Shown: piece after piece, positions 9,859 through 28,542 of the stretch
How positions within the stretch are numbered: position 1 is the stretch's first letter
How the letters are laid out: the number at the start of each line of letters is the position of its first letter
Source of the DNA: Methanoculleus sp. MH98A
Lineage (GTDB): Archaea > Halobacteriota > Methanomicrobia > Methanomicrobiales > Methanoculleaceae
Length of the DNA stretch: 35,720 nucleotides
Direction of reading: 5' to 3'
Assembly (NCBI RefSeq): GCF_000691865.1
Contig: NZ_JMIO01000060.1
Coordinates: 1 to 35,720 of the forward strand
Position numbers and translations under genes: made by a program
Notes under the pieces: model-generated
What the model saw: only the letters and a program-made list of their open reading frames with translations
Told to the model about the DNA's origin: nothing
Database searches by the model: none

Positions 9859-10923
9859 CTACCGCTTCGCCCGGATCAGGAATACGGCAACGACGGCACC
9901 AATGAGCGGGATCACGCCGAACCCCGGCGACTGAACCGCCCCGGTCGGCTTCGGCGTGCCCTCCCCGGAGGTGCCCGGATGGAGGTAGCCCGCCACTTCT
10001 TCAAGCGCATCCACAATCCGCGGGCTCCCCCGGCTGACGACGTCAGCGTCGATGACGTAGACGCGGTCGTTCCTGACCGCGTCGAGGTTCTGCAGGCGGG
10101 GCTCGTTGATGATGTAGTTGTAGATGGCGTCGTAGCCGTCCCGGTCCATCCCGCTGCCCGAACTGACCAGGATATAGTCGGGATTCGTGGTGATGAACTC
10201 CTCGAGGCTGACGATGCTCCAGCCGTCGACCGAGCCGAACGCATTGGTTCCGCCGGCAATCGTGATCACCTCGTTCTGAAACGTTCCCTGCCCGCAGACC
10301 CAGAGCGGGTCGTGCCAGATGACGTGGGCGACGGATGGCTTTTCGGCCTGGCTCCCGGCCGCCTTTTCGGCAACAACTCCTATGCGGTCCCGGAGTTCTT
10401 CGATGAGTGTTGACGCCTGCTCTTCCTGCCCGGTCGCTCTTCCGGCAAGTTCGATGTCGTGCAGGACGCCGTCGATCGTCTGCGGGTCAAGGAAGACGAC
10501 GGTCATCCCCAGGGTTCGCAGGCGGTCGATGACTTCGTCGGTGTTGGCGGGCGCGGCGAAGATCAGGTCGGGTTCCGCGGCGATCACTTTCTCGATGTTG
10601 ACGGTGCTAAACCCGCCTACCTTCGGCTTATTGGCTGTTGCCGGCGGATAGTCGCAGCGTTCGGTGACGGCGACGATGCGGTCATCAAGCCCGAGGGCAT
10701 ACAGGATCTCGGTATTGGAAGGCGCGAGCGAGACGATTCTCTGTGGTGCTCCCCGGATGAGGACGGTCTTCCCGGAGTCGTCGGTCACCGCCACGGATCG
10801 TTCGCCGCCGTCCGCTGTTGCGAGCGGTTCTTCAGGAGGCACGGGTGCCGCGCCGGCCGTCCCGGCGAGCAGGAGCAGCACGACGAGCGGTGCAAGAGAG
10901 TGTATCAGGCGCGTGGTTTGCAT
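9859..10923 (-). CDS. btuF: Cobalamin/iron-type ABC transporter substrate-binding protein, PGF-CTERM anchored
   Basis: A 354-residue type III periplasmic-binding protein of the BtuF/FepB family. A signal peptide covers about 1-27 (LVVLLLLAGTAGA). The binding domain starts near residue 45 (VAVTDDSGKTV, then RIVSLAPSNTEILYALGLDDRIVAVTERCDYP, the classic BtuF opening). The C-terminus SPGFGVIPLIGAVVAVFLIRAKR is a PGF-CTERM-like sorting signal, so it is probably processed and lipid-anchored by an archaeosortase. The ATG at 10923 gives the proper signal peptide; the frame extends 17 codons upstream without support. It has its own AT-rich promoter, 150 bases beyond the btuD end. Cobalamin is the favoured substrate by family resemblance and the high corrinoid need of the Mtr complex; a siderophore or heme cannot be excluded. 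Confidence 0.85.
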   Translation of the reverse strand: MQTTRLIHSLAPLVVLLLLAGTAGAAPVPPEEPLATADGGERSVAVTDDSGKTVLIRGAPQRIVSLAPSNTEILYALGLDDRIVAVTERCDYPPATANKPKVGGFSTVNIEKVIAAEPDLIFAAPANTDEVIDRLRTLGMTVVFLDPQTIDGVLHDIELAGRATGQEEQASTLIEELRDRIGVVAEKAAGSQAEKPSVAHVIWHDPLWVCGQGTFQNEVITIAGGTNAFGSVDGWSIVSLEEFITTNPDYILVSSGSGMDRDGYDAIYNYIINEPRLQNLDAVRNDRVYVIDADVVSRGSPRIVDALEEVAGYLHPGTSGEGTPKPTGAVQSPGFGVIPLIGAVVAVFLIRAKR

Positions 10924-10960
10924 TACTATAGTACACTTGCGTTGAGGTAATAATAACTTA
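10924..10960 (-). promoter_or_regulatory. btuF promoter with TACTATAGTA palindrome
   Basis: Read on the minus strand, an AT-rich TATA-like stretch (AAGTTATTATTACC, about 10947-10960) is followed about 20 bases on by the perfect 10-bp palindrome TACTATAGTA (10924-10933). The palindrome touches the ATG and lies at the expected transcription start. A repressor bound here would block initiation. Confidence 0.45.
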
Positions 10961-11073
10961 CAAATCGTGTTCACGCTATGGCACTGAAGCGCCTGCCGAT
11001 CGCGCGTTTCCCGTTCCCAAAACGGTCCGGCGCATACCGGCGGGTTTGATGGCCGCAGGGTGCGGTCCGGGGT

Positions 11074-12330
11074 TCAATCGCGATCGGAGCCGTCCCGCGA
11101 GAGGCGGGCGAGAAGTTCCTCCGCCCCCTCGACCCGGAGCGCCCCGCGCGCCTCCAGGTTCGCCAGCACCGCACCGGCTTCGCCCCCGGTGCAGTCTTCC
11201 ATCCGGGTGCTGTGGTCTCTTGCATAGAAGAGGACGGGTTTTGCCGGATAGTCGAGCAGCACCCGGAGGTTGTCGAGGTTCCCCTTGCCGATCGGCATCG
11301 CCGTAACGATGACGGCGTCTGCACTCTCCAGGCACTTCCTGAGGCCCGAGAGCGATTCCGGGGTGATGCCGTGAAACGGGGGCTCTGCGACACAGGGAAG
11401 ACCGAGGTGCATGGCCGTTCCGTAGTCTGTGTCGAGGACATTTAAGACGCCGCAGGTGACCGTGAAACCCGCGGCATGGAGCAGGTGGAGGATATCGGAG
11501 CCCGTTCCCCCGCCGCAGACGACGTGCACCCGCCGGTTCGCTCCCGCACTCGACTGGTGCATGTATACCGGCAGGACGTATGGTTTTCCCGTAAGCGGGT
11601 GCGGTTTGACGAGCATCTCCATCCCGAAGATCTCACGGATGTTCTCACGGGTCAGGACCGCCCCGGGCGCTCCTGCGGCGTAGACCTTCCGGTCTTTGAG
11701 GAGCAGGAGCCGGTCGCAGTAGTATGCGGCCAGGTTCAGGTCGTGAAAGACGCTTACGACCGTGATCTCACCCGCGAGGTCCCTGATGATGTTGAGGATC
11801 TCGACCTGGTGGCTGACGTCGAGGTTCGAGGTTGCTTCGTCGAGCAGCAGGATCGTCGGTTCCTGCGCAAGCGCCCGCGCTATGAGCACACGCTGGCGTT
11901 CTCCGCCGCTGATGTCGTGCACCGAGGCCCCGGCGAGAGCTGCGACGTTTGCAAGGTGCATGGCGTGGTCGCAGATCTCCACGTCCCGGGCCGTCTCGGA
12001 GGCAAACCGTCCGATGTAGGGGTGCCTGCCCATCATGACGACGTCGCGCACCGAATAGTCGAAGCCGATCGAGATGTCCTGCGGAACGACCGCAACCCGG
12101 CGCGCAAGTTCGCGGTGCCCGAGCGAGTCGAGATCCCGGTCATCGAGCCGGATCTCCCCGTTATCGCGTGCGACGATCCTGGTCATTGCTTTCAGGAGCG
12201 TCGTCTTTCCCGACCCGTTCGGCCCGACGATGCCGAGGATCTCGCCTGCGTCCGCGTGGAACGTGATTGCTTCGAGGATCTTCTTTGCGCCGTAAGAGAC
12301 GTCGATATCGGTGATCTCAATCGGTTTCAT
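11074..12330 (-). CDS. btuD: Cobalamin-type ABC transporter ATPase with extra C-terminal domain (BtuD)
   Basis: A 418-residue protein. Residues 1-255 form a FepC/BtuD-type ABC ATPase: P-loop GPNGSGKTT at 36-44, signature SGGERQ at 141-146, Walker B ILLLDEATSNLD near 160-171 and switch His in FHDLNL at 196. Residues about 266-418 are a second, Rossmann-like domain that starts RRVHVVCGGGTGSDILHLL and is not part of the normal ATPase. The function of this domain is not known to me; the glycine-rich turn suggests nucleotide or cofactor binding. The ATG overlaps the btuC stop by 4 bases (ATGA), so btuC and btuD are coupled. Confidence 0.88.
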   Translation of the reverse strand: MKPIEITDIDVSYGAKKILEAITFHADAGEILGIVGPNGSGKTTLLKAMTRIVARDNGEIRLDDRDLDSLGHRELARRVAVVPQDISIGFDYSVRDVVMMGRHPYIGRFASETARDVEICDHAMHLANVAALAGASVHDISGGERQRVLIARALAQEPTILLLDEATSNLDVSHQVEILNIIRDLAGEITVVSVFHDLNLAAYYCDRLLLLKDRKVYAAGAPGAVLTRENIREIFGMEMLVKPHPLTGKPYVLPVYMHQSSAGANRRVHVVCGGGTGSDILHLLHAAGFTVTCGVLNVLDTDYGTAMHLGLPCVAEPPFHGITPESLSGLRKCLESADAVIVTAMPIGKGNLDNLRVLLDYPAKPVLFYARDHSTRMEDCTGGEAGAVLANLEARGALRVEGAEELLARLSRDGSDRD

Positions 12331-13277
12331 GCTTTCATCCGGCTCCGGAGGAGGTATATGAAGAACGGTGCGCCGAAACAGGCGGTCAGGATGCCGACAG
12401 GCATGTCGCTCGTGAAGGTTCGCGTGAGCGCGTCCGCCCATACGAGGAGGATGGCGCCTGCAAGTGCGGCCGCGGGAAAGAGGAAACGGTGGTCGGGGCC
12501 GACGATCAGCCGCATCACGTGCGGGGTAATGAGGCCGATGAACCCGATTGAGCCGGCTACTGCAACGGCTATTCCGGTCACGAAGGCGCTCAGTGCGAGG
12601 AGGATCTGTTTCGCCCGCTCGACGTTCACCCCGAGGTGGGTTGCGTCCTCTTCGTTCAGGGCGAGGATATTGAGGTCGCGTGCGAAGAGGTAGATGCCCG
12701 CACCCCCGATCAGGATGGGAAGGGCGACGACGACGTCGTTCCACGATATGTTCCAGAACCCTCCCATCAGCCAGAACATGATCTGGTGCAGACTTTTTCC
12801 TGCGGTATACATGAGGAAGGAGAGGAGTGCCGACAGAAGCGTCGCGAGGGCGACGCCGGAGAGCAGGAGCGTCTCGACCGGGATCTTGCCCCCTCTGCGG
12901 GCGATGAAGTAGACGGTAAACGTTGCGATCATCGCCCCGGCGAATGCAAGCACGGTGCGTCCCGTACCGGCGAAAAAGACGATTGCGAGGGTTGCCCCGA
13001 GCGCTCCGCCCGACGACGTGCCGATGATGTAGGGGTCGGCCATGGGGTTTCGGAACAGCGCCTGCATGGCCGTGCCTGCCACGGCAAGCCCGCACCCGAC
13101 CAGCGCTGCGGCGATCACCCTCGGCAGCCGGATCTCCCAGAGGATCATCCAGGCGTTATCCGAGGTAAGCAGCGATCCGAAGGCGATCCCGCTTGGTCCG
13201 AGAGCGACCGCAGCGGCCATGCTGATGAGGAGCACGCAGATGAGTGTTGCGATGATGATCGGTGCTGTTCTCCGCAT
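12327..13277 (-). CDS. btuC: Cobalamin-type ABC transporter permease (BtuC, FecCD family)
   Basis: A 316-residue polytopic membrane protein with about nine to ten hydrophobic segments. It has the FecCD family landmarks: RLPRVIAAALVGCGLAVAG near residue 50, ALFRNPMADPYIIGTSSGGALGA near 74-96, and the ATPase-contact and late motifs GFIGLITPHVMRLIVGPDHR (about 244-263) and ADALTRTF. It transports the substrate delivered by BtuF and is powered by BtuD, with which it overlaps. It is the first gene of the btuCD unit and lies behind an AT-rich promoter. Cobalamin over ferric-siderophore specificity is an inference from family resemblance and context. Confidence 0.88.
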   Translation of the reverse strand: MRRTAPIIIATLICVLLISMAAAVALGPSGIAFGSLLTSDNAWMILWEIRLPRVIAAALVGCGLAVAGTAMQALFRNPMADPYIIGTSSGGALGATLAIVFFAGTGRTVLAFAGAMIATFTVYFIARRGGKIPVETLLLSGVALATLLSALLSFLMYTAGKSLHQIMFWLMGGFWNISWNDVVVALPILIGGAGIYLFARDLNILALNEEDATHLGVNVERAKQILLALSAFVTGIAVAVAGSIGFIGLITPHVMRLIVGPDHRFLFPAAALAGAILLVWADALTRTFTSDMPVGILTACFGAPFFIYLLRSRMKA

Positions 13278-13754: not shown

Positions 13755-14720
13755 ATGGGCAATCTGAATGTTGCCGTGCTGGGACCCGCCGGTTACGCAA
13801 AAGACCTCGGGAAGAAAGGCACGGAATCCGATATCACCTTTTACAATCTGAAGAAGGGCGAGGACACCGTCACCGTCATCGAACCTACCCGGTATCCCGA
13901 ACGGCTGGCCCCGCTCTTCTACGCCGCATCGATGGCGGATGCGGCTCTCGTCGTGGTGAGCGAGATCACCCCGATGCTCGGGGAGTGGGTGCTGATGCTC
14001 AATGAGGCGGGGGTGGAGCGGGGCTACATTGTCCTCCGAAACTACCTCACCCCTGACGACGTCGCGCCGCTCCTGCGCGGGACGGTGCTCGAGCATTATG
14101 CGTTCGTGAACGAAGACCCGATCGCGCTGCGCGATCTCCTGCTTGGCGAGGCGCATGCCCACTCCTCCGTCCCGCTCGCCGCCGGTGCCGTGGGAACCAT
14201 CCCCATCGATCACCACTTTAACGTCCGCGGCATCGGGACGGTCATCCTCGGCGGCGTGGTGCGGGGCGGGATCAAGAAACACGATACCCTGAAGGTCTAC
14301 CCCGGGGAGAAGGCAATCACGGTGCGGTCGATCCAGAAGCACGACGACGACTTCGACTGGGCTGGCGAGGGCGACCGCGTGGGGCTTGCGCTCAAGAACA
14401 TCGAGTCCGACGACCTCGATCGCGGTTTCGTCCTCTCCGACGACCCCGCGATCCGGGTGGGGGCGAACCTCGAGGCACGGGCGACCCTGGTCAGGTACTG
14501 GCCGGCGCCGCTCACGGCGGGAACGGTGCTCCACCTCGGCCACTGGATGCAGTTCATCCCGGCGAGGGTGGAGGCGGTGCAGGACGACGGCGACTGGCGG
14601 CAGCCGACGCTCACGCTTGTGCTCGAGCGGGATCTCGTCTACCTCCCGGGGGATGCGGCGGTGCTCCACTACCTCGAGGGCGGGAAACTCCGGATCGCCG
14701 GGCATATCGAACTCGCGTAA
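13755..14720 (+). CDS. EF-Tu/SelB-like translation factor paralogue with degenerate GTPase domain
   Basis: A 321-residue protein in the elongation-factor family layout. An N-terminal Rossmann-like domain (about 1-140) is followed by an EF-Tu domain 2 (about 150-235, IDHHFNVRGIGTVILGGVVRGGIKKHDTLKVYP, GEGDRVGLALKNIESDDLDRGFVL) and a domain-3-like beta barrel (about 240-321). The GTP-binding motifs are gone. The P-loop position reads GPAGYAKDLG instead of GHVDHGKT, the DxPGH position reads EPTRYPERL, and the NKxD position reads LRNYL. It therefore should not hydrolyse GTP in the usual way. Similar proteins are annotated in methanogens as EF-1-alpha-related; their role is not established. The gene stands alone, followed by a T-rich terminator. 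Confidence 0.8.
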   Translation: MGNLNVAVLGPAGYAKDLGKKGTESDITFYNLKKGEDTVTVIEPTRYPERLAPLFYAASMADAALVVVSEITPMLGEWVLMLNEAGVERGYIVLRNYLTPDDVAPLLRGTVLEHYAFVNEDPIALRDLLLGEAHAHSSVPLAAGAVGTIPIDHHFNVRGIGTVILGGVVRGGIKKHDTLKVYPGEKAITVRSIQKHDDDFDWAGEGDRVGLALKNIESDDLDRGFVLSDDPAIRVGANLEARATLVRYWPAPLTAGTVLHLGHWMQFIPARVEAVQDDGDWRQPTLTLVLERDLVYLPGDAAVLHYLEGGKLRIAGHIELA

Positions 14721-14903: not shown

Positions 14904-15941
14904 TTAGATGAGCCTGAAGAACGGGTGGCTGTCCACCTGGGGCTCGATGCCGAAGTCGCGTGCCGCTTCCAGCACGACGATGTCGGTGTAGGCCTGCGCG
15001 GTGATCATCGCTTCCACGTTCTCGATCGGGCCGTACATGATCAGGTCGGCACCGAGGGTGCTTGCAATCATGTTGCAGCCGATATCGGGCGCGGACCAGG
15101 CTGCCTGGCGCATCCCGTCCGTACCACCGAGGTAGTGGTGCAGGAGCTGCTCGACGAGCCCTTCCTTGCCCTCGAGGCCGGCGAGCTGCTGCGAGGGGGT
15201 CTTCTTCGTTCCCTTCCAGCGCTTCAGCCAGGTCCAGGAGACGGTCATGTTGTGGTAGGCACCACCGGTCGGCAGGCCGTGGATCGCCTTGCAGGCGAGG
15301 ATCTCACGGTAGGAGCCACCGGAGCCGAGACCGAGCGGGGTTGCCGCGGTGTCGAGGATCGGGCGGGTGATACCGCACTTCTCCGCGATCTCGAGCATAC
15401 CCATCTCCTGTCCGGCGACACCGCCCTCGACCAGGACCTTCTCGCGGCCGGCAACCGAGGGGTCGGCGGGGTTGAAGGCGAGGACAATGGCTGCGTTCAC
15501 ATCGCTCTTGGCCAGCGCCTCGATGTTCTCCGGTCCGATCGAACCGTTGATCGAGTTGTAGATCGCACGGTCGGCGACACCTGCTTCGGTGACGTACTCG
15601 CATGCGTGGGCGAGCGCCGCCGGGACGGACGAGTCCATCAGGAACGCGGTCTTGTCATCGATGCTGCAGAACCAGTCGATGTAGCTCTCGAAGGCCTCGC
15701 CGAACTCCCCGATGATCTGGATGAAGTGCGGAATGCCGGTGAGATCCGAGAGTTCCTGGCAGCGGTTCCAGAGCGCCTCTGCCTTTGGTTTGTCAATCTT
15801 TCCAGTGTGGTCATCCAGTACAACTTCGTGCTTGTTGTAGAAGATGGATGCACCGAGCACGGTCGGGTACTCTCCAGGCTGCCCGCCGATCATGGTACCG
15901 TTGAAGTCGTGTACCGTCTGCTCTTTTTCGAATTTGAACAT
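14904..15941 (-). CDS. mtrH: Tetrahydromethanopterin S-methyltransferase subunit H
   Basis: A 345-residue soluble subunit that binds methyl-tetrahydromethanopterin (or methyl-tetrahydrosarcinapterin) and transfers the methyl group to the corrinoid of MtrA. The opening MFKFEKEQTVHDFNGTMIGGQPGEYPTVL and the pterin-binding TIM-barrel segments (SINGSIGPENIEAL, ILDTAATPLGLGSGGSYREI) are typical. The length is normal for the methanogen subunit. AGGAGG lies just upstream of the ATG at 15941; an in-frame start ten codons earlier lies within the Shine-Dalgarno region and is rejected. It is the last gene of the mtr operon, in the usual position after G. Confidence 0.96.
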   Translation of the reverse strand: MFKFEKEQTVHDFNGTMIGGQPGEYPTVLGASIFYNKHEVVLDDHTGKIDKPKAEALWNRCQELSDLTGIPHFIQIIGEFGEAFESYIDWFCSIDDKTAFLMDSSVPAALAHACEYVTEAGVADRAIYNSINGSIGPENIEALAKSDVNAAIVLAFNPADPSVAGREKVLVEGGVAGQEMGMLEIAEKCGITRPILDTAATPLGLGSGGSYREILACKAIHGLPTGGAYHNMTVSWTWLKRWKGTKKTPSQQLAGLEGKEGLVEQLLHHYLGGTDGMRQAAWSAPDIGCNMIASTLGADLIMYGPIENVEAMITAQAYTDIVVLEAARDFGIEPQVDSHPFFRLI

Positions 15942-15957: not shown

Positions 15958-16698
15958 TTACAGGTACCCAATCAATTTGGGCAGTAATACCAACAACATC
16001 ATGAATACAATCAAACCTGCGACCAGTCCGTACAGGATGCCGATATCGCGCCCGACCTTTCTTCCGACGCGCTGTGCGATCTCGGCATCGACGAACTCGA
16101 TCCTCTCCTCAATGGCGTTGAGCCTTTCTTCGATCTCAAGGAACTGCGGGTTTGCACCTGCAACGGCAACTTCCGCCGCACCGCCTCCTGCTTCCTTTAC
16201 CTCGACGACCATGGGTTCCGCGCCGAAGGCACCGGGGTCTCTGGCCTTGAGCTCGTCGATCTTGGCCTTGATGACACCCATGTCCTCGCTTTCCATGATG
16301 TTGACGATCTCGACCTGTTCCTGGAAGCGGCTGATCGCATCGTCGGAGAGGTTCTCGATGAACGGGATGGCTCCCTGGGCGCCGACAATCTTTCCGTCGG
16401 AGACTCCGCCTTCGTGCAGGGCTATGAAGCTCTGCCCGGACAGGTGTCCCTTGACCTCCGTACCGCAGCAGAGGATGAACCTGATGTTGGGGTTGGAGAT
16501 GACGTTCGCGATGATCTTCTCAAGGCCGAGGTTCTCGGTCTTGCAGGACCCGGCGATTGCCGCTCCGGCATCGCAGATGGCCTGTTCGTCGAGGTGGGAT
16601 CCCATGGTGACGACGCCGACGCAGCTCTGTGCATCTCCCGTGTGGAAGTCGCCCTGAACGATCGGCCATCCGCTGGCCGGTGATTTCTTCTCAACCAT
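15958..16698 (-). CDS. MtrA-MtrG fusion: second corrinoid subunit joined to subunit G
   Basis: A 246-residue protein in the place where a small mtrG gene is expected. Residues 1-172 are the MtrA cytoplasmic corrinoid domain, differing from the true MtrA by only 6 residues. EVKGHLSG carries H85, the position of the cobalt-ligating His84 of characterised MtrA. Residues about 183-246 are a full Mtr[24 protein letters not shown], then the conserved [14 protein letters not shown] and a C-terminal membrane helix (about 222-242). A Gly/Ala-rich linker joins them. Either the complex holds two corrinoid domains per protomer, or this domain is structural. It lies between mtrF and mtrH, and its ATG is one base from the mtrF stop. 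Frame and both domains are intact, so it is not a pseudogene. Confidence 0.93.
16191..16698 (-). repeat. Direct repeat of the mtrA 5' region, copy in the fusion gene
   Basis: About 508 bases, colinear without gaps with 17133-17640 at an offset of 942. I count about 15 mismatches over the roughly 500 aligned bases (about 97% identical). The similarity stops where the MtrG linker begins. The closeness points to recent duplication or ongoing gene conversion. Confidence 0.9.
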
Positions 16699-16699
16699 G

Positions 16700-16909
16700 T
16701 TAGATCGCCCCCAGCATCAGTGCCGGAATCACAATCAGAAGCACGGCTACGACGAGCCCGATCGCGAATCCGAGGATCCCTTTGCCCATGATGCCCGACT
16801 CAAGTTTGGTCGTGCGGGCAAGGATCTGTGCCTTGTACCGGATGGCGTCCATCATGTTGTTGATCGAGGTCATCCGGATGGGGCCTGCCTGTGTAACTTC
16901 TTCTGCCAT
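16700..16909 (-). CDS. mtrF: Tetrahydromethanopterin S-methyltransferase subunit F
   Basis: A 69-residue subunit with a short N-terminal helical part resembling the MtrA membrane-proximal segment ([28 protein letters not shown]) and one C-terminal membrane helix (about 45-68). The length and sequence fit MtrF, a small structural component of the membrane-bound Mtr complex. It lies between mtrA and the fusion gene, with almost no spacing on either side. Confidence 0.92.
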
Positions 16910-16914
16910 TTATC

Positions 16915-17640
16915 TCACCCCAGCAAGATGAACCCCAGAATCACGAACGAGACGATCAGGCCGATCATGAGACCTTCGATCTTGCCCGAGTAGACACCGG
17001 CGGCAAACTTGTTGCGGTAGCCGATGTCGGTGACCATCCGCTCGATGACTTTCATCCGTGCGTGTACCAGTGCCAGTTCGCCGGAGAGCGGCTGTACTTC
17101 ACCGGTCGCTTCCTCTGCGCCGGCACCGCCCGCTTCCTTGACCTCGACGATCATGGGTTCCGCGCCGAAGGCACCGGGGTCTCTGGCCTTGAGCTCGTCG
17201 ATCTTGGCCTTGATGGCACCCATGTCCTCGCTTTCCATGATGTTGACGATCTCGACCTGTTCCTGGAAGCGGCTGATCGCTTCGTCAGAGAGGTTCTCGA
17301 TGAACGGGATTGCTCCCTGGGCGCCGACAATCTTTCCGCCGGAGACTCCGCCTTCGTGCAGGGCTATGAAGCTCTGCCCGGACAGGTGTCCCTTGACCTC
17401 CGTACCGCAGCAGAGGATGAACCTGATGTTGGGGTTGGAGATGACGTTTGCGATGATCTTCTCAAGGCCGAGGTTCTCGGTCTTGCAGGACCCGGCGATA
17501 CCTGCTCCGGCATCGCAGATGCCCTGCTCGTCGAGGTGGGATCCCATGGTGACGACGCCGACGCAGCTCTGTGCATCTCCTGTGTGGAAGTCGCCCTGAA
17601 CAATCGGCCATCCGCTGGCCGGTGATTTCTTTTCAACCAT
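16915..17640 (-). CDS. mtrA: Tetrahydromethanopterin S-methyltransferase subunit A (corrinoid protein)
   Basis: A 241-residue subunit that carries the cobamide accepting the methyl group from MtrH and passing it to coenzyme M. The corrinoid domain (1-172) includes [25 protein letters not shown], and EVKGHLSG with the cobalt-ligand His at 85. A linker and a membrane-proximal helix ([29 protein letters not shown]) precede the single C-terminal membrane helix (about 220-240). This is the standard MtrA layout, unlike the fusion gene downstream. ATG 17640 is chosen over an in-frame GTG at 17652 because it gives the same [10 protein letters not shown] start as the other copy and leaves GAGGTG as the ribosome-binding site. 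Confidence 0.95.
17133..17640 (-). repeat. Direct repeat of the mtrA 5' region, copy in the authentic mtrA
   Basis: Partner of the repeat at 16191-16698. It includes the start codon and stops after the conserved VEVKEAGG codons. The 3' part of mtrA (linker and membrane helix) is unrelated to the fusion gene. Confidence 0.9.
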
Positions 17641-17653: not shown

Positions 17654-17938
17654 TCATAGCAGTCCTAATACGACGACACCGGCAACCAGAAGGCCGATTG
17701 CCATGCCGTACCAGAATGCGGTCACGCCTCCGGCGACGTTGAGAACACCTTCTCTGTTCGGGAACGATGCCAGGAAGTTGCCCTCTCCGGAGAGCATGCC
17801 GACCAGGTCGTCGGTAATCTTCTCAAGTTCCGTTACCTGCTCGAGCACGGGGGTGTACGAGACACCGGCGGTGGTGACAATGCCGACCATCGGGTCGGCG
17901 ACCAGGCCGAACTCGGGCAGTACCTGAACGTACGCCAT
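17654..17938 (-). CDS. mtrB: Tetrahydromethanopterin S-methyltransferase subunit B
   Basis: A 94-residue subunit with a soluble N-terminal part ([21 protein letters not shown], typical of MtrB) and one C-terminal membrane helix (about 72-94). MtrB helps join the core of the Mtr complex. Its ATG follows directly on the mtrC stop (TAAATG), so translation is probably coupled. Confidence 0.93.
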
Positions 17939-18790
17939 TTAGGCACCTCCCTTGGGCTCCATAATGGGCTGAGCGTCGAGCCATGCGTAGGCGTCACGCT
18001 TCGAGAGCGCGATGTACTTCGTGTAGGTGTAGAGCCACCCGATGATGGAGATCACCAGTGCGATGAAAGCGGCATATGTGCCGATGAACGCGAACGAGAT
18101 GATCGCGACGGCGATCATGGAGAGGAACCCGCACTCTGCGGCGAGCATGAGCGTCCGGTCCTGCTGCTCTCCCGGCCCGAGACAGGCGTTGAAAGAGTGC
18201 TGGATGGCGATGGCGCCGAGCATGAAGATCACGGCGATGATGCTGCCGCCGATGACCGAAGTCTCGTAGGTCTGTACGGTGAATCCGAGGAAGGATACCG
18301 TGCCGGTGATCATGCCGAGGAACTCGAACGTTCCGCAGGCCATGGTCGCGAGGCCGAGCACCGTCATTGCGCCGACGATGGCAAGCTCGATCAGCGAGAC
18401 AATCATGACGGGGATGTCCATCCGGACCACGTGGTTTGCCATCAGCCCGGCGACCGCGCCGATGATTGCGGCGATGATGATCGTCACGATGGGCGCGAAT
18501 ATGCCGGTCGTGGCTCCGAAGAGCGCGGCGACGACACCGGACCCGAGGGCGATCATACCTGCCGACGGGACACCGGTACCGAGACCGTAGCTGCAGAGGT
18601 GCTTGATCGTGTCGGTACCCCAGATGAGTGCGGCGATGGCGGCAAGTCCGCCGAAGAACGCGAAGTACTGGGTCTGGAAGTACGTGTTCAGGTATGTCAG
18701 GTAAATCAGGACGAGCGATCCTACAAGTCCGTAGATCAGGACCTGGTTGTGCGGGATGCCGCCTGCTCCGACTTCAATTTTTACTGACAT
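17939..18790 (-). CDS. mtrC: Tetrahydromethanopterin S-methyltransferase subunit C
   Basis: A 283-residue polytopic membrane subunit with about seven hydrophobic segments. Matching stretches are IPHNQVLIYGLVGSLVLIYLTYLN at the start, the GTDTIKHLCSYGLGTGVPSAGMIALGSGV region and FNACLGPGEQQDRTLMLAAECG. With MtrD and MtrE it forms the membrane core thought to carry the sodium path. The start abuts the mtrD stop (TAAATG). No oddity seen. Confidence 0.95.
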   Translation of the reverse strand: MSVKIEVGAGGIPHNQVLIYGLVGSLVLIYLTYLNTYFQTQYFAFFGGLAAIAALIWGTDTIKHLCSYGLGTGVPSAGMIALGSGVVAALFGATTGIFAPIVTIIIAAIIGAVAGLMANHVVRMDIPVMIVSLIELAIVGAMTVLGLATMACGTFEFLGMITGTVSFLGFTVQTYETSVIGGSIIAVIFMLGAIAIQHSFNACLGPGEQQDRTLMLAAECGFLSMIAVAIISFAFIGTYAAFIALVISIIGWLYTYTKYIALSKRDAYAWLDAQPIMEPKGGA

Positions 18791-19642
18791 TTAGAATACC
18801 CCCACCAGTTCGAGCAGCGCAATCGCGAAGAAGCCTGCCACGGCGGACGCCACGGCGGCTGCGATGATCGCTCTCGGGAACCGCTTGAACTTGGGGTCGT
18901 GCGGCCCTTCGATCGTACCGGTGATGTTGTATGCCGCAAGCACGGCGTTGATCAGGAACATACCGACCGCGAAGATGCCGGCAAGCGAGATTGCGACGGG
19001 CGCGATCTGCTCGACCGTGGCGTTCAGGAGTACGGGCAGCTGCGCCTGGTAGATGTCGAGGAGCTCGAGGTAGATGAGCGTTCCCCCAAGACCGCCGAGC
19101 GCGCCGCCGACGACACCGCCGACCCAGGAGATGAACGGGAGGCCGTGCCCCTCGGTACCCTGGCTCTTGTACTCGGGGAAGGTGTCGCCCGTGATCGGGT
19201 CCTTGTCGACCTTACCGGATGCTGCCGGGATACCCATACCGAAGATGTAGATGACGTTGACCATCGTACAGGTGATCGCCATCAGAAGACCGCCGCCGAC
19301 CGCACCGCCCGCGAGGGCGACTGCGAGTCCGAACGGAGCGGCCCATGCGCCGCCGAAGAGTCCGGCAAGGCCGGCACCGGCCGCGAGCATCGCGACACCG
19401 GTCGCGATACCGGGCGACTGTCCCATTGCAGCGGGGGCACCGCCGACCGGGACGAAGTGGACGCCGAATGCGACCAGGACACCGCCGATGATGATGCCGA
19501 CGAGAGCGATCACTCCGGCCATCTGTACGAGGAAGTAGGCGAGTCCGAGTGCGACGATGATAAGAACGATGCTGAGGACGATACCCATTGCCGTCGGGGA
19601 CTGGACGCCTCCTGTCTGTTTAGGCCCGCCAAGTGCGCTCAT
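18791..19642 (-). CDS. mtrD: Tetrahydromethanopterin S-methyltransferase subunit D
   Basis: A 283-residue polytopic membrane subunit, rich in Gly and Ala, with about six membrane segments and the conserved ITCTMVNVIYIFGMGIPAASGKVDKDPITGD loop near the middle. It also has GTEGHGLPFISWVGGVVGGALGG. The protein is longer than the roughly 230-250 residues common in other methanogens, because of an N-terminal stretch (MSALGGPKQTGGVQSPTAMG) before the first helix. The ATG overlaps the mtrE stop by 4 bases and has GAGGAGG upstream. It is part of the sodium-translocating core. Confidence 0.95.
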   Translation of the reverse strand: MSALGGPKQTGGVQSPTAMGIVLSIVLIIVALGLAYFLVQMAGVIALVGIIIGGVLVAFGVHFVPVGGAPAAMGQSPGIATGVAMLAAGAGLAGLFGGAWAAPFGLAVALAGGAVGGGLLMAITCTMVNVIYIFGMGIPAASGKVDKDPITGDTFPEYKSQGTEGHGLPFISWVGGVVGGALGGLGGTLIYLELLDIYQAQLPVLLNATVEQIAPVAISLAGIFAVGMFLINAVLAAYNITGTIEGPHDPKFKRFPRAIIAAAVASAVAGFFAIALLELVGVF

Positions 19643-20538
19643 GATGATGCCTCCTCAGGAGCCGCCGAATAGGGGCCGAAGTTCTTCCTTGCCCAGACCT
19701 CGATGTAGCGGTCGATGATGGCAAAGAGCAGGATAACGACGACACCGACGATGATCGGTCCCCAGATGTTGAGCTCTTCGAAGACCACGGTACGCCAGAG
19801 TTCGAAGAAAACGATCAGGCCAAAACAGATGCCCGACGCGGGGCCGCCGAGTTTGGCGCTGAAGAAACCGTTGTCGAGCGAGTTCCGCTGGCCGGCCTCG
19901 GCGTAGCGGACGATGTTTCCGGACGCAGAGATCGGAACGCCTGCTCCGAACGCCTGCTCCTGGTACTGCCGCTCCTTTCCGTAGAACGGGTTACCGGTTG
20001 CAGACCCGGCTGCACCGAGTGCGATACCCCAGACGAGACCCAGAAGCGGGAGCGGGAAGGGGTGGCCGAGTGCGCTGATCATCAGGTGACACATTGCGAC
20101 GGTGGTGAAGATTGCTACGAACGCGTGTGCCATGGTCACGGTCGTCATCGATTTCAGAATATCGATATAGACCGGCTGTCCGAACTTGGCGAGACTTGCA
20201 GTACGGCCGAGGTATGCGGTAGTCGCATACACGCCCTGCACGAAGACCGCGAGAGCGCTCCCGAGCACGATTGCAAGTATCGGGTTTATCTGCATCGCCA
20301 TGAATGCCCAAGCAAGGCCTGCACCCAGAGCAACCCATAGGCCGTACGCGGGGGGTTCACCGGCAACTGCCTTGTTGAAGATGCGGTGAATATATCCCAT
20401 CTGCGGAGCCAGCTGAACCTGTGAGTTCGGGTCACCCTGTGATCCGATATCAGATTCAGTGTCTTCCGCAGCGCCGGCGACGGTTGCAAGAGCACCTGCC
20501 AATGCGGTAATGCCGATGCCAAATACGATCTCTTCCAT
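19639..20538 (-). CDS. mtrE: Tetrahydromethanopterin S-methyltransferase subunit E
   Basis: A 299-residue polytopic membrane subunit, first gene of the mtr operon. It begins MEEIVFGIGITALAGALATVAGAAEDTESDIGSQGDPNSQVQLAPQMGY, the hallmark MtrE N-terminus, and has about six membrane segments. The conserved GNPFYGKERQYQEQAFGAGVPISASGNIVRYAE loop is present. GGAGGAGG lies upstream of the ATG. MtrE is proposed to contain part of the sodium channel and the coenzyme M site with MtrC and MtrD. Confidence 0.96.
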   Translation of the reverse strand: MEEIVFGIGITALAGALATVAGAAEDTESDIGSQGDPNSQVQLAPQMGYIHRIFNKAVAGEPPAYGLWVALGAGLAWAFMAMQINPILAIVLGSALAVFVQGVYATTAYLGRTASLAKFGQPVYIDILKSMTTVTMAHAFVAIFTTVAMCHLMISALGHPFPLPLLGLVWGIALGAAGSATGNPFYGKERQYQEQAFGAGVPISASGNIVRYAEAGQRNSLDNGFFSAKLGGPASGICFGLIVFFELWRTVVFEELNIWGPIIVGVVVILLFAIIDRYIEVWARKNFGPYSAAPEEASS

Positions 20539-20732: not shown

Positions 20733-22439
20733 TTACCGGGCCGGGATGATGAGCGAGCGCTCGCCGGCGGGCATGAATTCGCGGATCGCACCCTTCGCGA
20801 ACTCGCGGCGGGGCTCGGCGAAGTCGAACTTCAGCGCCGGGTCGGCGAAGCAGATCGCTACCCGCGGGTCGAAGCACCACGCATCGCCGCGCCCGTAGTG
20901 GGCACCGCCGACGATGGCGGCGTACTCGCCCTGGTGTCCGACGTTCATCGCGTAGTTCGGGTAGTTCGGTCCGCGGACCTCGCCGATCGCGCCCTCGTCT
21001 CCGCGGATGGAGAGGGAGTTCGCGGACCCGCACTGGTCCTGGAGGTCGTAGCCGAAGAAGCCGAGACGTGACCATCCGTCCTTGTGCAGGAGCATGGAGA
21101 GGTACCATCCGTTCAGGCCGGCGTTGGAGTTGCCGGTACCAATGGAGCAGGTCAGACCGCAGGCGGCGGCAATGACGCCGGCACGCTGGGAACCGCCGAA
21201 GTGGTCCTCCATAAGGGTCGGGAACTGCTCGTACTGCTCCATGGCGTTGATGGCGACCTCGGTCGCCATGTCGTTGACGACGTCGTAGGTCGGCTTGACC
21301 TTGTCGTCCGGGCTCGGGTTGCGCCAGTCGACCTTGTACTTGTCCTTGATGTAGTCCATACCGTAGTAGGTGTACTCATCGAGGATGTTGTCGGTGTAGG
21401 CCGCGGTCGCGTACTGCGTGAAGCCAACGCCGCCGGACATGTAGGAGCCGAGCCAGATCTGGTCGAACAGCATGGTTCCGGCGCCGACGACCTCGAGAGA
21501 GGCCTTCGCGGGGTCGTTGGGGTACTTCCGGTTCGCCTGGATGATATCGCTGAAGAGACCGAATCCAAGACCGCCGGGCTCATTCGGGCCACGGGCACGC
21601 CGGGCGGGCAGGTGGGACGCCATCTGGATGACGCCTGCGTGCTTCGCGGCGTAGGAGAGGTCGGCGACGGCCGCTTCACCGGCGCACATGCGGTAGGCAC
21701 CGATGAAGGACATACCGATCTGCATCGCAGACCACCGGGAGGTCGTTCCGCCGTCACAGGTCCTTGAGACCGTGGTCGGGATGTGGATCGCCTGCCAGAG
21801 GGACTTTCCTACGGCTGCGGAGAGCGCTTCGGCCTGCTTCGCCGGGAAGAGTTTCTCGACGTCGAGGACGAACTGCGGCTCGAGGTCGTCGGCGAGTTCC
21901 TGGTCGCCGGTGAAGACCTTGACGTAACAGTCGTCGACGAGGCCGGGGTGAGTCTCGACCATGTGCTCCTGGACGACGGCCGCGCCGGGCATCGCGTGGT
22001 TCAGCACGTGGAGATACTCGTTGATCGTCTCGGGGGTGACTTCTTTGCCCAGACGCTTCTGCAGGGTCTGGTGGGCGAGGTCCATGTTGACGATGACGGT
22101 TCTCCTGATATCGTCCCAGAACTGCTGCATCGCAGAGTTGTTGACGAAGTGCAGGTCGTCACCCTCCACAAAGACGCCGGTGCCGGAGACCTCGTAGGTC
22201 ATCAGCTGGCGCTGGCCGAGCGGGATACCGCCCAGGTGGCAGCGCACGGGGTCGTACATGGAGATACCGCGGTCCATCTCGACGGCACGGCTTGCCTTCA
22301 CGAACTCCTCCTTGCGGGGAGACTGGTGGTAGCCGTTGAACTTGTAGAATTCGGTCGTCTCGGACTGGACGTCCTGGCCCTGGAACTTCTCCTTGAGCGA
22401 TTTCAGGAAGAGTTTCTGGGTTCTCTCAATCTTTGCCAT
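20733..22439 (-). CDS. mcrA: Methyl-coenzyme M reductase subunit alpha
   Basis: A 568-residue catalytic subunit. With McrB and McrG it binds F430 and reduces methyl-CoM with coenzyme B to methane and heterodisulfide. The nickel ligand Gln is at 157 (VVQEHM). Residues modified in studied enzymes are conserved: H267 (KHAG, methyl-His), R281 (LPARRARG, methyl-Arg), Q418 (GGSQRAG, methyl-Gln), G463 (FFGYDLQ, thioglycine), D468 and C470 (DQCG). Offsets from the Methanothermobacter numbering are consistent, +10 then +18, implying an 8-residue insertion between 281 and 418 (around [12 protein letters not shown]). The modifications themselves cannot be seen in DNA. It is the last gene of mcrBDCGA. 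Confidence 0.98.
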
Positions 22440-22444
22440 CGTAA

Positions 22445-23209
22445 TCAGGCCTCCTTGGGTAGGAACCCGTATTTTGTTCGCAGCGTGTGGATGCGCTGGA
22501 CGTACTCGACGTACTCCTTGTCGTCACGGTAGGCGGTGCCGCCGAGCGAGTGGAAGATCGTCGTGTGCGCCTTGAGCCACTTCTCGTCCAGCGGCTTGCC
22601 GACGGCAACCGCACGGTCGAGGGGCTCGCCGATCTGGTTCTTGACGTAGCGGACGATGCCGTCCTCGCCAAGGACACTCCTCTGGAGCATGTCGAACATC
22701 ATGCCGTTCTCGGCAAGACGGAGCGAGTGGCCGTGCACGGTCGCGCCGCGGATGCCGGTGCGGGCCGGGTCGAGGAGTTCGGTCTCGATGAGTTCCTTGG
22801 AGTACTTCTCGAGGTCGCGCTCGCGGCACTCGACGATCTGACGGCCGGAGAGCGTACCGGGGTCGATACCGCGGAAGCGGTAGCACTCGGTGTAACTCCT
22901 CTGGTAGGGGTGGCAGGGGGCGAAGAACATCGAGTCCGTAAACTGGATGTAGCGAACACGGTCGCCTGCCTTGGCACCCTCCGTTGGGGTTACAATCTTC
23001 CTGATGGGGCAGTCGGGCTCCTGCTGCTCGGCGAGCGGCGGGTGGGACGTCGGATAGGCGGCTCCCGGCGCCCTGTGGCCGAGGATAAGCACGATGTCTT
23101 CATCAGTTACGTCACGCATTTTCTCAAGCTTCTGGTTGGGGTCCATCTGCTTGCGCCGGTTTGCGGCGACGTTGGATGTACCCGGCCCGAATTGGGGCTT
23201 GTATGCCAT
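22445..23209 (-). CDS. mcrG: Methyl-coenzyme M reductase subunit gamma
   Basis: A 254-residue subunit, close to the roughly 250 residues of the family. It starts [25 protein letters not shown] and contains [20 protein letters not shown] and [23 protein letters not shown], which contribute to the F430 and CoM pockets. ATG 23209 is chosen because it gives the conserved N-terminus and follows GAGGTG. An in-frame start seven codons earlier lies ahead of that site. It is separated by 5 bases from mcrA. Confidence 0.97.
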
Positions 23210-23226
23210 GTTTCTTTTCACCTCAT

Positions 23227-23850
23227 TCATGTTGGGCTTTTTAGCACTTTCATAACGGCACGAATGACCTCTGCCAATTTTTCCCTGCCAGGTGTCTGGC
23301 CCCTTGTTACGCCGCTGACGATATCCATCACGATGCCCTTCGTCTTCGTCCGGTCGGGCGGCGGCATAACCACCGCGGTCCTGACCCCCTCTTTTGCGAG
23401 ATCCTCGAAGTCGATCGGAACCTGGGATACGACGATAGCCTTGATGTTCGCGTGCTCAAGGATAAACCGGACTTTCTGCACCACATGGGAGCGGACGTTC
23501 CCATGATGCAGGATGGCTACCTTGTGCTGCTCGATCTGGGCGATCTCTTTCTCCGTAAGTCCGAAATAGGCTCCGAGAACGTGACCCGCGACGGGTGAAT
23601 CTGCCGGAACCCCGCTCCCTGCATTGAGGACGAGCGTGGTCACGGAGAACTCCGCCCCCTCCCTCCGGAGACCGGAGGTGATGTCGCAGACCGGTTTCGT
23701 CACGTGCCTGCGGCCGGGGGACATTCCAATCACGATCACATCCGGGGATCTGGTCTCGGAGATGGTGCCCCGCTGGGCGAGACCGCCTCCTTTTCCCATC
23801 CCCATGCTTTCGCGGCAATCGACGACCTGGGTTACTCTTCCGATTGGCAT
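23227..23850 (-). CDS. mcrC: Methyl-coenzyme M reductase operon protein C
   Basis: A 207-residue protein starting MPIGRVTQVVDCRESMGMGKGGGLAQRGT, the typical McrC opening with its conserved Cys and Gly-rich loop. It also has LNAGSGVPADSPVAGHVLGAYFGLTEKEIAQIEQHKVAILHHGN. McrC is not part of the purified reductase; it has been linked to the ATP-dependent activation complex that reduces nickel to Ni(I). It sits one base after the mcrD stop, in the standard operon order. Confidence 0.93.
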   Translation of the reverse strand: MPIGRVTQVVDCRESMGMGKGGGLAQRGTISETRSPDVIVIGMSPGRRHVTKPVCDITSGLRREGAEFSVTTLVLNAGSGVPADSPVAGHVLGAYFGLTEKEIAQIEQHKVAILHHGNVRSHVVQKVRFILEHANIKAIVVSQVPIDFEDLAKEGVRTAVVMPPPDRTKTKGIVMDIVSGVTRGQTPGREKLAEVIRAVMKVLKSPT

Positions 23851-23851
23851 C

Positions 23852-24328
23852 TTACTTGTTTCCCTGAATGATAACGGGACCGCCTTTCTTTCTGGGATCG
23901 ACGAGCCCGAGAACTTCTCTGTCGACGTCAGGTCCGTATTTCGCGTAGTCGGACACCGTCGGCCGGGACTTCATGAACCGCCCCTTCTGGACGGTGCAGG
24001 AGAAGTCCTTATCGGCAAAGACTTCGTCGACCGCTTCCTCGATGGCCGGGATGTACGACTCGTCCTCGAGTTCCAGGATAACGTTTCCGACCTGTACCTG
24101 GAGTTGGACATCCTGGTCTCCGATACGGATGACCTTGCGGTCCGGGTGGGGATTGGGTTTCCCCCGTGCCGGGCCGTAGGGAACGGTGGCGGGAAGGTTC
24201 TGTCCGGTAAGAGACATCCGGAGAATCCCGCCGACCCGAACAAGCCTGTTCAGGAGTTTTTCCACCGTGTCGGGTCTGAGGAATCGCGCAGAAACGATTC
24301 GAACCTGAGGGTATATGGCTTCGGTCAT
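23852..24328 (-). CDS. mcrD: Methyl-coenzyme M reductase operon protein D
   Basis: A 158-residue protein matching McrD: IVSARFLRPDTVEKLLNRLVRVGGILRM near the start and LTGQNLPATVPYGPARGKPNPHPDRKVIRIG in the middle. It has a ferredoxin-like alpha/beta layout. McrD binds the reductase and is thought to act as a chaperone in assembly or F430 insertion. It lies directly after mcrB. Confidence 0.93.
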   Translation of the reverse strand: MTEAIYPQVRIVSARFLRPDTVEKLLNRLVRVGGILRMSLTGQNLPATVPYGPARGKPNPHPDRKVIRIGDQDVQLQVQVGNVILELEDESYIPAIEEAVDEVFADKDFSCTVQKGRFMKSRPTVSDYAKYGPDVDREVLGLVDPRKKGGPVIIQGNK

Positions 24329-24345
24329 TGGTATCCTTGTGTTAT

Positions 24346-25650
24346 TTACACACCCTGTGCGATCTGCTGCATCGGCTTGTTGAAGACGTCAACCTGGCCG
24401 AAGGTGTCGCCGTAGACCTTGGATGTGCTCTCCGGCGAGAACATCTGCGTTCCGGCATCGAGTGCCGCCGCAGCGACCACGCACGGGATAGCCACGCCTG
24501 CGGCGTGCCTGGTGACGACGTGGTTGCCGTTGAAGACACCGGGTCCGCCGCCACCGTAGATCGAGTGGCTGAAGAACGAGAACCCGACGGCGGTACCCAT
24601 AACACGGCCGTAGTCACAGCCGGGGAGACCGGTCTCGTGCTCAAGCAGGTCGTTGAAGTACAGGAGCGTCGAGGAGACTGCCTGGGCGAACCGTCCGGCA
24701 CCGCAGTTGACCATGGTGGCTGCCATGGTTCCCGCAGCGGCGTAGGCGTTCCAGAGCATGGGGTCCTTCGTGTCGTAGAACTGGAAGTACCCGCCCTTCT
24801 TGCCGGGGGTGATGACCTTGTCCTCGATGGCGCGCTCGACCAGACTCTGCACGACCGTGCCGATGGTTCCGGTCTCGCCGTTTTCCTTGACGAGTTCGTA
24901 GACCATGTTGTTCGCGTTCAGGCCCTGGTAGGCATAAGTGAGCAGCTGGGCACGCTCAAACGGTCCGATGGCGTTACCCATCTCAAACATTCCTGCCTGT
25001 TCGAAGGTGGACGAGAGTGCGGCGCCCTGCATCGCGTTCCTGCCGGTGATCATCACGGCGTGATTGACCGGGATGTTCCGGAGCGCGTAGCCGAGGCCTT
25101 CGTTGTTCTGGGGGAGCGACAGGATGGACGTGACGTTGGCGCCGGTAAGGTCCACCGTGTGCGGGTAACCGCCCCAGACTGCTGCCTTGACCATCGCTGC
25201 GTCGAACGCTCCGATATCGAACTGCTCGACAATCGAGAAGGTGGTCGCGGCTGCGACCGACGCGATTGCAGCGTCGTAGGTGGATGCGGCCTCCATGCGG
25301 ATGCTGGGCACCTCGACGAGAATGAGCTTGCCGCCGCCGAACTCGCGGATGTTGGTGTTGTCACCGTCCTCGACCTGGACCATCTCCTTGATCTTTCCGA
25401 TGATGGCGTCCTTGTTGCCGATGATGTCGAGGTTAAGCTCACGCCCGAGGACATAGCCCTTGGCTACCTTTCCGGTCTTCAGGCCTTCCTGAATACCGCC
25501 CAGGTTGACTGCAACCGTCCTCTTGGTAAGGTCGATAATTTTCCGGGTTGCCGGGTTGATCACCGGGCTGATCTTCTCGAGCGGCACTCCACTCTTCAAC
25601 TGCTTGCCTGCATCATCGTACAGGTCAATAGTTTCCTTGTATTTTGCCAT
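24346..25650 (-). CDS. mcrB: Methyl-coenzyme M reductase subunit beta
   Basis: A 434-residue subunit, first gene of mcrBDCGA. It begins MAKYKETIDLYDDAGKQLKSGVPLEKISPVINPA and carries the conserved SIYGGGGPGVFNGNHVVTRHAAGVAIPCVVAAAALDAGTQ block near the C-terminus. That block shapes the coenzyme B channel and F430 site. GGAGG lies 6 bases before the ATG. A long AT-rich promoter and leader precede it. Confidence 0.97.
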   Translation of the reverse strand: MAKYKETIDLYDDAGKQLKSGVPLEKISPVINPATRKIIDLTKRTVAVNLGGIQEGLKTGKVAKGYVLGRELNLDIIGNKDAIIGKIKEMVQVEDGDNTNIREFGGGKLILVEVPSIRMEAASTYDAAIASVAAATTFSIVEQFDIGAFDAAMVKAAVWGGYPHTVDLTGANVTSILSLPQNNEGLGYALRNIPVNHAVMITGRNAMQGAALSSTFEQAGMFEMGNAIGPFERAQLLTYAYQGLNANNMVYELVKENGETGTIGTVVQSLVERAIEDKVITPGKKGGYFQFYDTKDPMLWNAYAAAGTMAATMVNCGAGRFAQAVSSTLLYFNDLLEHETGLPGCDYGRVMGTAVGFSFFSHSIYGGGGPGVFNGNHVVTRHAAGVAIPCVVAAAALDAGTQMFSPESTSKVYGDTFGQVDVFNKPMQQIAQGV

Positions 25651-25783
25651 AATTTTCCTCCATTACCCTCTTTAAGTGCATACAATCCGGGAGTGTGAAA
25701 TGAACGCTAAAAGCATCGCTGACTGTGACTGTTGGTGACTACTGCACGTCCTCGTGGGACAAAATGATAGTATCCTTCTCGGA

Positions 25784-25825
25784 TGATATAAGCATTGCTG
25801 TTTATGTCTATGAACAAATATATAT
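25784..25825 (-). promoter_or_regulatory. Promoter elements of the mcr operon
   Basis: On the minus strand a strong TATA box, ATATATATTT, lies at 25816-25825. It predicts transcription start near 25793 and a leader of about 140 bases. A second candidate, GCTTATATC at 25784-25792, would give a shorter leader. Two alternative promoters are possible. Confidence 0.6.
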
Positions 25826-25834
25826 CGCGAGTCC

Positions 25835-28539: not shown

Positions 28540-28542
28540 CGC

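What the first reader, a model, noticed from the sequence alone, without database searches (positions are those of the whole stretch)
15958..17640. Second MtrA corrinoid domain fused to MtrG in place of a plain mtrG
The mtr order is E-D-C-B-A-F-(A-G)-H. The protein at the mtrG position has a complete MtrA cytoplasmic domain, including the cobalt-ligand His in EVKGHLSG, followed by a complete MtrG. The complex would then hold two potential corrinoid carriers per protomer, or an idle second one. A plain mtrG is not found in the window. I cannot say whether this arrangement has been described.
Basis: partly seen in the sequence, partly recalled or inferred. Interest (0 to 1): 0.8.

Follow-up and report, generated by a model that had tools for sequence, protein, structure and literature searches.

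The report
Known MtrA-MtrG fusion of Methanomicrobiales
A methane-making archaeon of the genus Methanoculleus carries a second copy of the B12-carrying part of its sodium-pumping methyltransferase, joined to another subunit; the arrangement was published in 2015 and is widespread in its order, but what the second copy does is still untested.

Summary
On the minus strand the operon reads mtrE-D-C-B-A-F-(A-G)-H. The gene at the mtrG position is one 246-aa frame with a complete MtrA domain (PF04208, E 3e-84) followed by MtrG (PF04210, E 7e-23); no other mtrG was found in the assembly. It is not new: Wang et al. 2015 (PMC4632066) described this mtrA-2b (mtrA-G) fusion in Methanomicrobiales and its homogenisation by gene conversion. 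I extend that. Of 138 genomes of the order inspected, 135 have A and G in one frame and 3 break at a contig end; of 145 genomes outside the order with an mtrG match, none shows a fused-size frame among listed matches. In the 104 genomes with both copies complete, the cobalt-ligand His is present in both, including 19 diverged pairs (dS 0.5-1.6, dN/dS 0.04-0.12). That argues against an idle second domain. New here: the order's MtrH has a stretch 20-33 residues longer, and its MtrB arm is 5-6 residues shorter, than in plain-mtrG neighbours. Most likely the second domain is a working corrinoid carrier tethered through MtrG; loading and catalysis are unshown.

The parts
15958..16698 (-). mtrA-mtrG fusion (mtrA-2b), 246 aa
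   Evidence: One open frame; PF04208 + PF04210; TIGR01149 mtrG above cut-off
16189..16698 (-). MtrA corrinoid domain of the fusion, codons 1 to about 170; the stretch that stays alike with mtrA-1
   Evidence: identity profile (87 pairs) drops at about codon 170; Foldseek to 5l8x/5laa, TM(target) 0.92-0.95
16444..16446 (-). His85 codon of the fusion, the cobalt ligand position (His84 of M. marburgensis)
   Evidence: role from PMC4915002
16150..16191 (-). Linker between the MtrA domain and MtrG
   Evidence: AlphaFold2 pLDDT below 50 at residues 170-188
15988..16149 (-). MtrG part (PF04210 positions 10-63 of 64)
   Evidence: 9qtq_S and 8q3v_G
16915..17640 (-). mtrA-1, ordinary MtrA with its own stalk and membrane helix, 241 aa
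   Evidence: TIGR01111 335 bits
17386..17388 (-). His85 codon of mtrA-1
16700..16909 (-). mtrF, not fused
17654..17938 (-). mtrB, with an N-terminal arm 5-6 residues shorter than in the plain-mtrG neighbours measured
17939..18790 (-). mtrC
18791..19642 (-). mtrD
19639..20538 (-). mtrE
14904..15941 (-). mtrH, 345 aa
15105..15191 (-). Insert in MtrH (about residues 251-279), absent from M. mazei MtrH; edges approximate
   Evidence: alignment break

Best explanation
This is the mtrA-2b (mtrA-mtrG fusion) of Methanomicrobiales in a Methanoculleus, a published arrangement. The second MtrA domain hangs from the N-terminal, cytoplasmic end of MtrG by a flexible linker of about the same length as that of mtrA-1, so each protomer of the trimeric complex would hold two corrinoid domains (six per trimer). 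The most likely mode of action is that both bind cobamide and both shuttle methyl groups between MtrH and the MtrCDE globe. Gene conversion over the domain alone keeps the two copies interchangeable for their shared partners, while the anchor parts stay distinct. Shown here: the fusion, its wide presence in the order, likeness confined to the domain, conserved cofactor residues, and low dN/dS. Inferred: that gene conversion is the cause (as published), and that the protein is made full-length, loaded with cobamide, and turns over.
For: Domains, fold and order. One frame with A and G in 135 of 138 inspected genomes of the order, the other 3 ending at a contig edge. In the 104 with both domains complete, D17, K53, T54, E55, N56, G58, N65, H85, G109-A110-I111, F113, E115 and N116 are 104/104 in both copies (roles of most from PMC4915002); in no inspected genome is mtrA-1 complete and the fused domain not. 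Paralogues share a median 0.969 nt identity against 0.736 for mtrA-1 between species; identity falls sharply at about codon 170. In 19 of 104 pairs below 0.90 identity, dS is 0.49-1.60 with dN/dS 0.039-0.121. Linkers: A1 30-33 residues in 86 of 104, A2 29-31 in 99 of 104. MtrG's N-terminus is cytoplasmic in the solved complex (PMC10998594).
Against: No expression, mass or cofactor data were found. In most genomes conversion would preserve the residues whether or not the second domain works, so mainly the diverged pairs inform. The 104/104 counts are over complete copies only: L038, L047, L131 and L133 have frame breaks or missing stretches in the fused copy (L047 lacks residues 34-105, His included, in both copies; L131 lacks 30-120 in the fused one), dropped before the count and taken as draft-assembly faults without proof. 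Between relatives, A2-A2 dN/dS exceeds A1-A1 in 4 of 7 pairs, clearly in two (0.080 against 0.031; 0.143 against 0, the L137/window pair). The window's own pair is not a sister pair. Essentiality cited for the second paralogue (Sarmiento 2013, as cited in PMC4632066; not read) could come from the anchor subunit. Only three MtrCDE globes exist per trimer, so a second carrier is not obviously needed.
Confidence: 0.7

Rival explanations
1. The second domain is an idle passenger, kept only because gene conversion from mtrA-1 keeps rewriting it and because it sits in front of an essential mtrG.
For: Copies are very alike in most genomes: 70 of 104 pairs at 0.95 nt identity or more, 7 identical. MtrG is part of the stalk and its seal (PMC10998594, PMC12774963). 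A2-A2 dN/dS is above A1-A1 in 4 of 7 relative pairs.
Against: In 19 diverged pairs (dS 0.49-1.60) dN/dS is 0.039-0.121 and no listed cofactor residue is lost. In none of 138 inspected loci is mtrA-1 complete while the fused domain is not; the four loci with a damaged fused copy also have a damaged, merged or unreadable mtrA-1.
Confidence: 0.1
2. The second domain is specialised by position: tethered to MtrG, it serves the membrane-distal MtrH of each MtrH dimer, giving one corrinoid domain per MtrH (6:6), while mtrA-1 serves the proximal MtrH.
For: M. mazei Mtr has six MtrH and one MtrA per protomer, and its authors think the distal MtrH unlikely to be reached (PMC12774963). The fused lineage also has a longer MtrH stretch (137 of 137 measured) and a shorter MtrB arm (110 of 110 measured), against 0 of 19 and 0 of 19 in plain-mtrG neighbours.
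Against: The lineage changes amount to one branch, so their link to the fusion is untested. In two clades checked, the domain cores of the two copies do not diverge consistently, so any specialisation would be by tether alone. The MtrH insert has not been placed in a structure.
Confidence: 0.25
3. The fusion is cleaved after translation into a soluble MtrA domain and a plain MtrG.
For: The linker is predicted disordered; soluble MtrA homologues exist elsewhere (PMC4915002).
Against: By eye the linker has no conserved site beyond a Gly/Ala/Glu-rich stretch; the end next to NPQF is conserved and looks like the MtrG N-terminal strand. No evidence of cleavage was found, and none could be sought here.
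Confidence: 0.05
4. Assembly artefact: a misjoined repeat created the fusion.
For: The near-identical repeat does break or collapse assemblies: many short MtrG frames end at a contig edge, and L092, L112 and L140 lack mtrA-1 and mtrF between mtrB and the fusion.
Against: The intact layout occurs in 101 of 138 loci, including single-contig genomes, and the fusion in the named genera; it was published from complete genomes (PMC4632066).
Confidence: 0.01

Closest known systems
mtrA-2b, the mtrA-mtrG fusion of Methanomicrobiales (Wang et al. 2015, PMC4632066)
   Same: Same order of methanogens, same operon place between mtrF and mtrH, same domain architecture, same pattern of copies alike over the domain only; two Methanoculleus species are in its sample.
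   Different: Nothing in architecture. In this larger sample the homogenisation is not continuous: 31 of 104 pairs are not sisters in the tree, the window's among them. The MtrH and MtrB changes are not in the parts of that paper I read, and 'insertion' does not occur in its main text.
mtrA-2a, the mtrA-mtrF fusion of Methanococcales and Methanocella arvoryzae (PMC4632066)
   Same: Second MtrA domain on another stalk subunit, with gene conversion.
   Different: Carried by MtrF, between mtrA-1 and mtrG; independent origin according to that paper.
EDCB[AF]FGH operon of TACK archaea, Methanoliparia and ANME-1 (PMC9982363)
   Same: An MtrA domain fused to another stalk subunit.
   Different: There mtrA is fused with a duplicate mtrF; known to me from passages only.
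Canonical Mtr of M. marburgensis (8q3v) and M. mazei (9qtq-9qts)
   Same: The fusion's two halves match their MtrA and MtrG chains.
   Different: One MtrA per protomer and a plain MtrG; M. mazei MtrH lacks the insert.

Membership tests
mtrA-2b / mtrA-G fusion of Methanomicrobiales | MtrA domain followed in one frame by MtrG | tested here: met
mtrA-2b / mtrA-G fusion of Methanomicrobiales | Located between mtrF and mtrH in an mtr operon that also holds mtrA-1 | tested here: met
mtrA-2b / mtrA-G fusion of Methanomicrobiales | Organism belongs to Methanomicrobiales | tested here: met
mtrA-2b / mtrA-G fusion of Methanomicrobiales | MtrA domain closer to the paralogue than to orthologues of other species | tested here: inconclusive
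   0.971 paralogue identity against a between-species median of 0.736-0.744, but the nearest species exceed it (mtrA-1 0.990 to L137; fused copy 0.973 to its nearest), and the pair is not a sister pair in the tree; 67 of 87 genomes meet it strictly, the window does not
MtrA, corrinoid subunit | Cobalt-ligand His and its Glu/meander network | tested here: met
MtrA, corrinoid subunit | Bound cobamide | not testable with these tools
   needs protein
MtrG | Stalk and membrane helix with the GRDIGILYG stretch | tested here: met
   Pfam positions 10-63; the first 9 profile positions are not matched and the linker stands there

The most novel reading that the evidence does not exclude
Methanomicrobiales run a variant Mtr with six loaded corrinoid domains per trimer, one for each MtrH, in which the MtrG-borne carriers open the otherwise unused distal MtrH sites; the MtrH insert near the mouth of the barrel and the shortened MtrB docking arm, found in every fused genome where they could be measured, are part of the same rebuild.
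Probability: 0.22. Interest if true: 0.65.

Novelty: already known. Interest (0 to 1): 0.35.

Why it matters
Mtr is the only chemiosmotic coupling site of many methanogens. A natural complex with twice the corrinoid carriers would test whether MtrA shuttling limits the pump, and whether the second MtrH of each dimer is used. The arrangement is in print, so its value lies in the untested function and in the MtrH/MtrB changes noted here.

Tried and rejected
One search compared the two genes without gaps from starts one codon apart; its 0.31 identity is out of register and is discarded (searches give the right figures). A first regex count of the MtrH and MtrB gaps missed many loci (48 of 138 fused and 2 of 20 plain unmeasured for MtrH; 61 and 8 for MtrB); it was replaced by an alignment count, which agrees in direction. 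A first pass on 87 pairs was superseded by 104 pairs, except for the identity profile and the between-relative dN/dS, which were run on the 87 only. The A1 linker regex failed for 52 rows; the wider one left 3 unmeasured and gives 15 short outliers (20-28) that are probably regex misplacements. Of 138 loci, 34 were left out of the pair counts because one or both MtrA domains were not complete in one frame. L225 was dropped before the structure alignment because it carries an mtrA-1; L217 because its frame holds a stop. Sigma-70 style promoter and terminator scans were near chance and are not suited to archaea. Methanococcales MtrH was not checked for the insert: I had no handle to that phylum.

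Paper searches listed, by title and abstract start, no study of the second copy's function apart from PMC4632066; I opened only six papers (PMC4632066, PMC10998594, PMC4915002, PMC12774963, PMC9982363, PMC13370731). Only open-licence PMC papers were searched.

Full report
What is there. On the minus strand the window holds mtrE (19639-20538), mtrD (18791-19642), mtrC (17939-18790), mtrB (17654-17938), mtrA (16915-17640), mtrF (16700-16909), an mtrA-mtrG fusion (15958-16698) and mtrH (14904-15941). The fusion is a single 246-aa frame. PF04208 (MtrA) covers residues 4-172 at E 3.1e-84 and PF04210 (MtrG) residues 184-237 at E 7.1e-23; NCBIfam's TIGR01111 (mtrA) and TIGR01149 (mtrG) both pass their cut-offs. 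By sequence its halves match the MtrA and MtrG chains of the solved Mtr complexes. AlphaFold2 (38 sequences, mean pLDDT 78) gives an MtrA fold, a low-confidence linker at 170-188 and one long helix 184-245; Foldseek matches MtrA structures 5l8x and 5laa at target TM 0.92-0.95. The assembly (306 contigs, 96% complete) has two MtrA matches, both here, and one MtrG match, the fused one.

It is in print. Wang et al. 2015 (PMC4632066; abstract, methods, results up to the start of the MtrH section, the discussion, and passages) report that Methanomicrobiales carry mtrA-1 plus mtrA-2b, an mtrA-G fusion between mtrF and mtrH, in eight genomes including two Methanoculleus, and that gene conversion homogenises the MtrA domains. 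Methanococcales and Methanocella arvoryzae have an mtrA-F fusion. A later paper notes a further A-F fusion in TACK archaea (PMC9982363, passages only).

How widespread. In the order, 179 of 232 held genomes have an MtrG match (127 of 135 of good quality). I inspected the DNA of 138 of those 179 (and the window). In 101 of 138 the full row mtrB, mtrA, mtrF, mtrA-G, mtrH is seen; 135 of 138 have MtrA and MtrG sequence in one open frame, and the other 3 (L034, L035, L036) end at a contig edge right there. Several assemblies break, collapse or lose stretches inside the repeat. In the phylum sample (392 genomes), 226 have MtrG; by my count 81 are in the order and 145 outside. For the 145, the listed MtrG frames are 57-143 aa (92 genomes, 53), too short for a fusion; second matches in two genomes (G429, G536) were not listed. 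Twenty such plain loci were read: 20 of 20 have a single MtrA and a separate MtrG; mtrF was not detected in one (L234). Named records put the fusion in Methanoculleus, Methanocalculus, Methanolinea, Methanoregula, Methanogenium, Methanospirillum, Methanocorpusculum, Methanofollis, Methanomicrobium and Methanorbis; the window's closest is Methanoculleus sediminis, 97%. That search kept the best 80 of 139 matches.

Is the second domain alive? In 104 genomes both domains are complete. The cobalt-ligand His85, its partner Glu55 and D17, K53, T54, N56, G58, N65, G109-A110-I111, F113, E115 and N116 are present in 104 of 104 in both copies; the two hydrophobic positions that sandwich the lower base vary conservatively (18: F or Y; 62: V, I or L), and Pro112 is Ala in 7 of 104 in each copy (roles from PMC4915002, passages). 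These counts are over complete copies: 34 of 138 loci were left out. Four of them have damage in the fused copy: L038 a frame break, L047 a gap over residues 34-105 in both copies, L131 a gap over 30-120 (and a break in mtrA-1), L133 a gap and frame break in the only copy seen. I take these as assembly faults in a near-identical repeat, which is unproven. In no locus is mtrA-1 complete and the fused domain not.

Paralogue identity is a median 0.969 at the DNA level (range 0.799-1.000) against 0.736 for mtrA-1 between species, and on 87 pairs it falls from about 0.91 to 0.54 and then 0.37 as one passes codon 170 into the linker. Conversion alone would conserve residues, so the informative cases are the diverged pairs: 19 of 104 are below 0.90 identity, with dS 0.49-1.60 and dN/dS 0.039-0.121. 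Of seven pairs of relatives, A2-A2 dN/dS is below A1-A1 in three, slightly above in two (0.062 against 0.057; 0.067 against 0.055) and clearly above in two (0.080 against 0.031; 0.143 against 0 for L137 and the window); all are well under 1. This favours a functional second domain, perhaps a little less constrained than the first. Only 73 of 104 pairs are sisters in the tree, so homogenisation is less continuous than the 2015 sample suggested, though some non-sister cases, the window among them, are just very close species. In eight Methanospirillum loci (one genus label, g36; one contig length equals that of M. stamsii) the copies differ consistently only near the ends of the domain (residues 3, 5, 6, 24 and 159-161), and neither copy forms its own clade.

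How it would work. Solved Mtr is a trimer of protomers; the MtrA domain swings on a linker between MtrH and MtrCDE, and MtrG starts in the cytoplasm and forms the three-helix bundle on the axis in the membrane (PMC10998594, passages; PMC12774963, first three parts of ten plus passages). A domain on MtrG would start close to that on MtrA. The two linkers are nearly equal (A1 30-33 residues in 86 of 104; A2 29-31 in 99 of 104, from the DPG motif to the stalk helix). So six carriers per trimer is the plain expectation. M. mazei Mtr has six MtrH for three protomers, each with one MtrA, and its authors think the distal MtrH is unlikely to be reached; six carriers would make the numbers equal. That last step is inference.

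New observation. In 137 of 137 measured fused genomes (1 of 138 unmeasured) the MtrH stretch between the HN motif and the DIGxN motif is 50-57 residues, against 24-30 in 19 of 19 measured plain neighbours (1 of 20 unmeasured). The MtrB arm is 35 residues in 110 of 110 measured (28 unmeasured) against 40-41 in 19 of 19 (1 unmeasured) (alignment). Against M. mazei MtrH the insert follows residue 249, close in sequence to the Arg239/Lys242/Lys243 patch that PMC12774963 places at the cavity exit, and in that structure the MtrB N-terminus docks MtrH. This is one branch of the tree, so it is a correlation of one event with another. A search for MtrH, insertion and Methanomicrobiales listed three papers (listing only); I did not open them.

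Verdict. A correct and well-read observation of a known arrangement. The open question is what the second carrier does; sequence evidence favours a working one.

Noticed in passing
window 15105-15191 (mtrH) and 17654-17938 (mtrB): MtrH carries a stretch 20-33 residues longer and MtrB an arm 5-6 residues shorter in every genome of the order where these were measured (137 and 110), not in the 19 plain-mtrG neighbours measured.
   Followed up: partly
window 20733-35409: By eye from the translations, mcr genes (20733-25650), formylmethanofuran dehydrogenase genes (26014-29856) and heterodisulfide reductase genes (30708-34229) lie on the same strand upstream of mtr: a methanogenesis cluster (not scanned against families).
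   Followed up: no
window 9859-13277: A periplasmic binding protein, an ABC ATPase and a FecCD-type permease lie just past the mtr operon; they could be a corrinoid uptake system next to a corrinoid enzyme.
   Followed up: partly
window 13755-14720 (+): A 321-aa protein with an EF-Tu domain 2 match, convergent with mtrH.
   Followed up: no
L092, L112, L140: In these assemblies mtrA-1 and mtrF are missing between mtrB and the fusion, as a collapsed repeat would give; such MAGs could be misread as having lost mtrA-1.
   Followed up: partly
L047 (G166): Both MtrA copies lack the same stretch, residues 34-105 with the cobalt-ligand His, in a five-contig, 97% complete genome. Probably an assembly fault, but the identical gap in both copies would also fit gene conversion of a real deletion.
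   Followed up: partly
L038 (G134), L131 (G227), L133 (G163), L145 (G061): Frame breaks or gaps inside one or both MtrA copies in draft assemblies, probably sequencing or assembly errors.
   Followed up: partly
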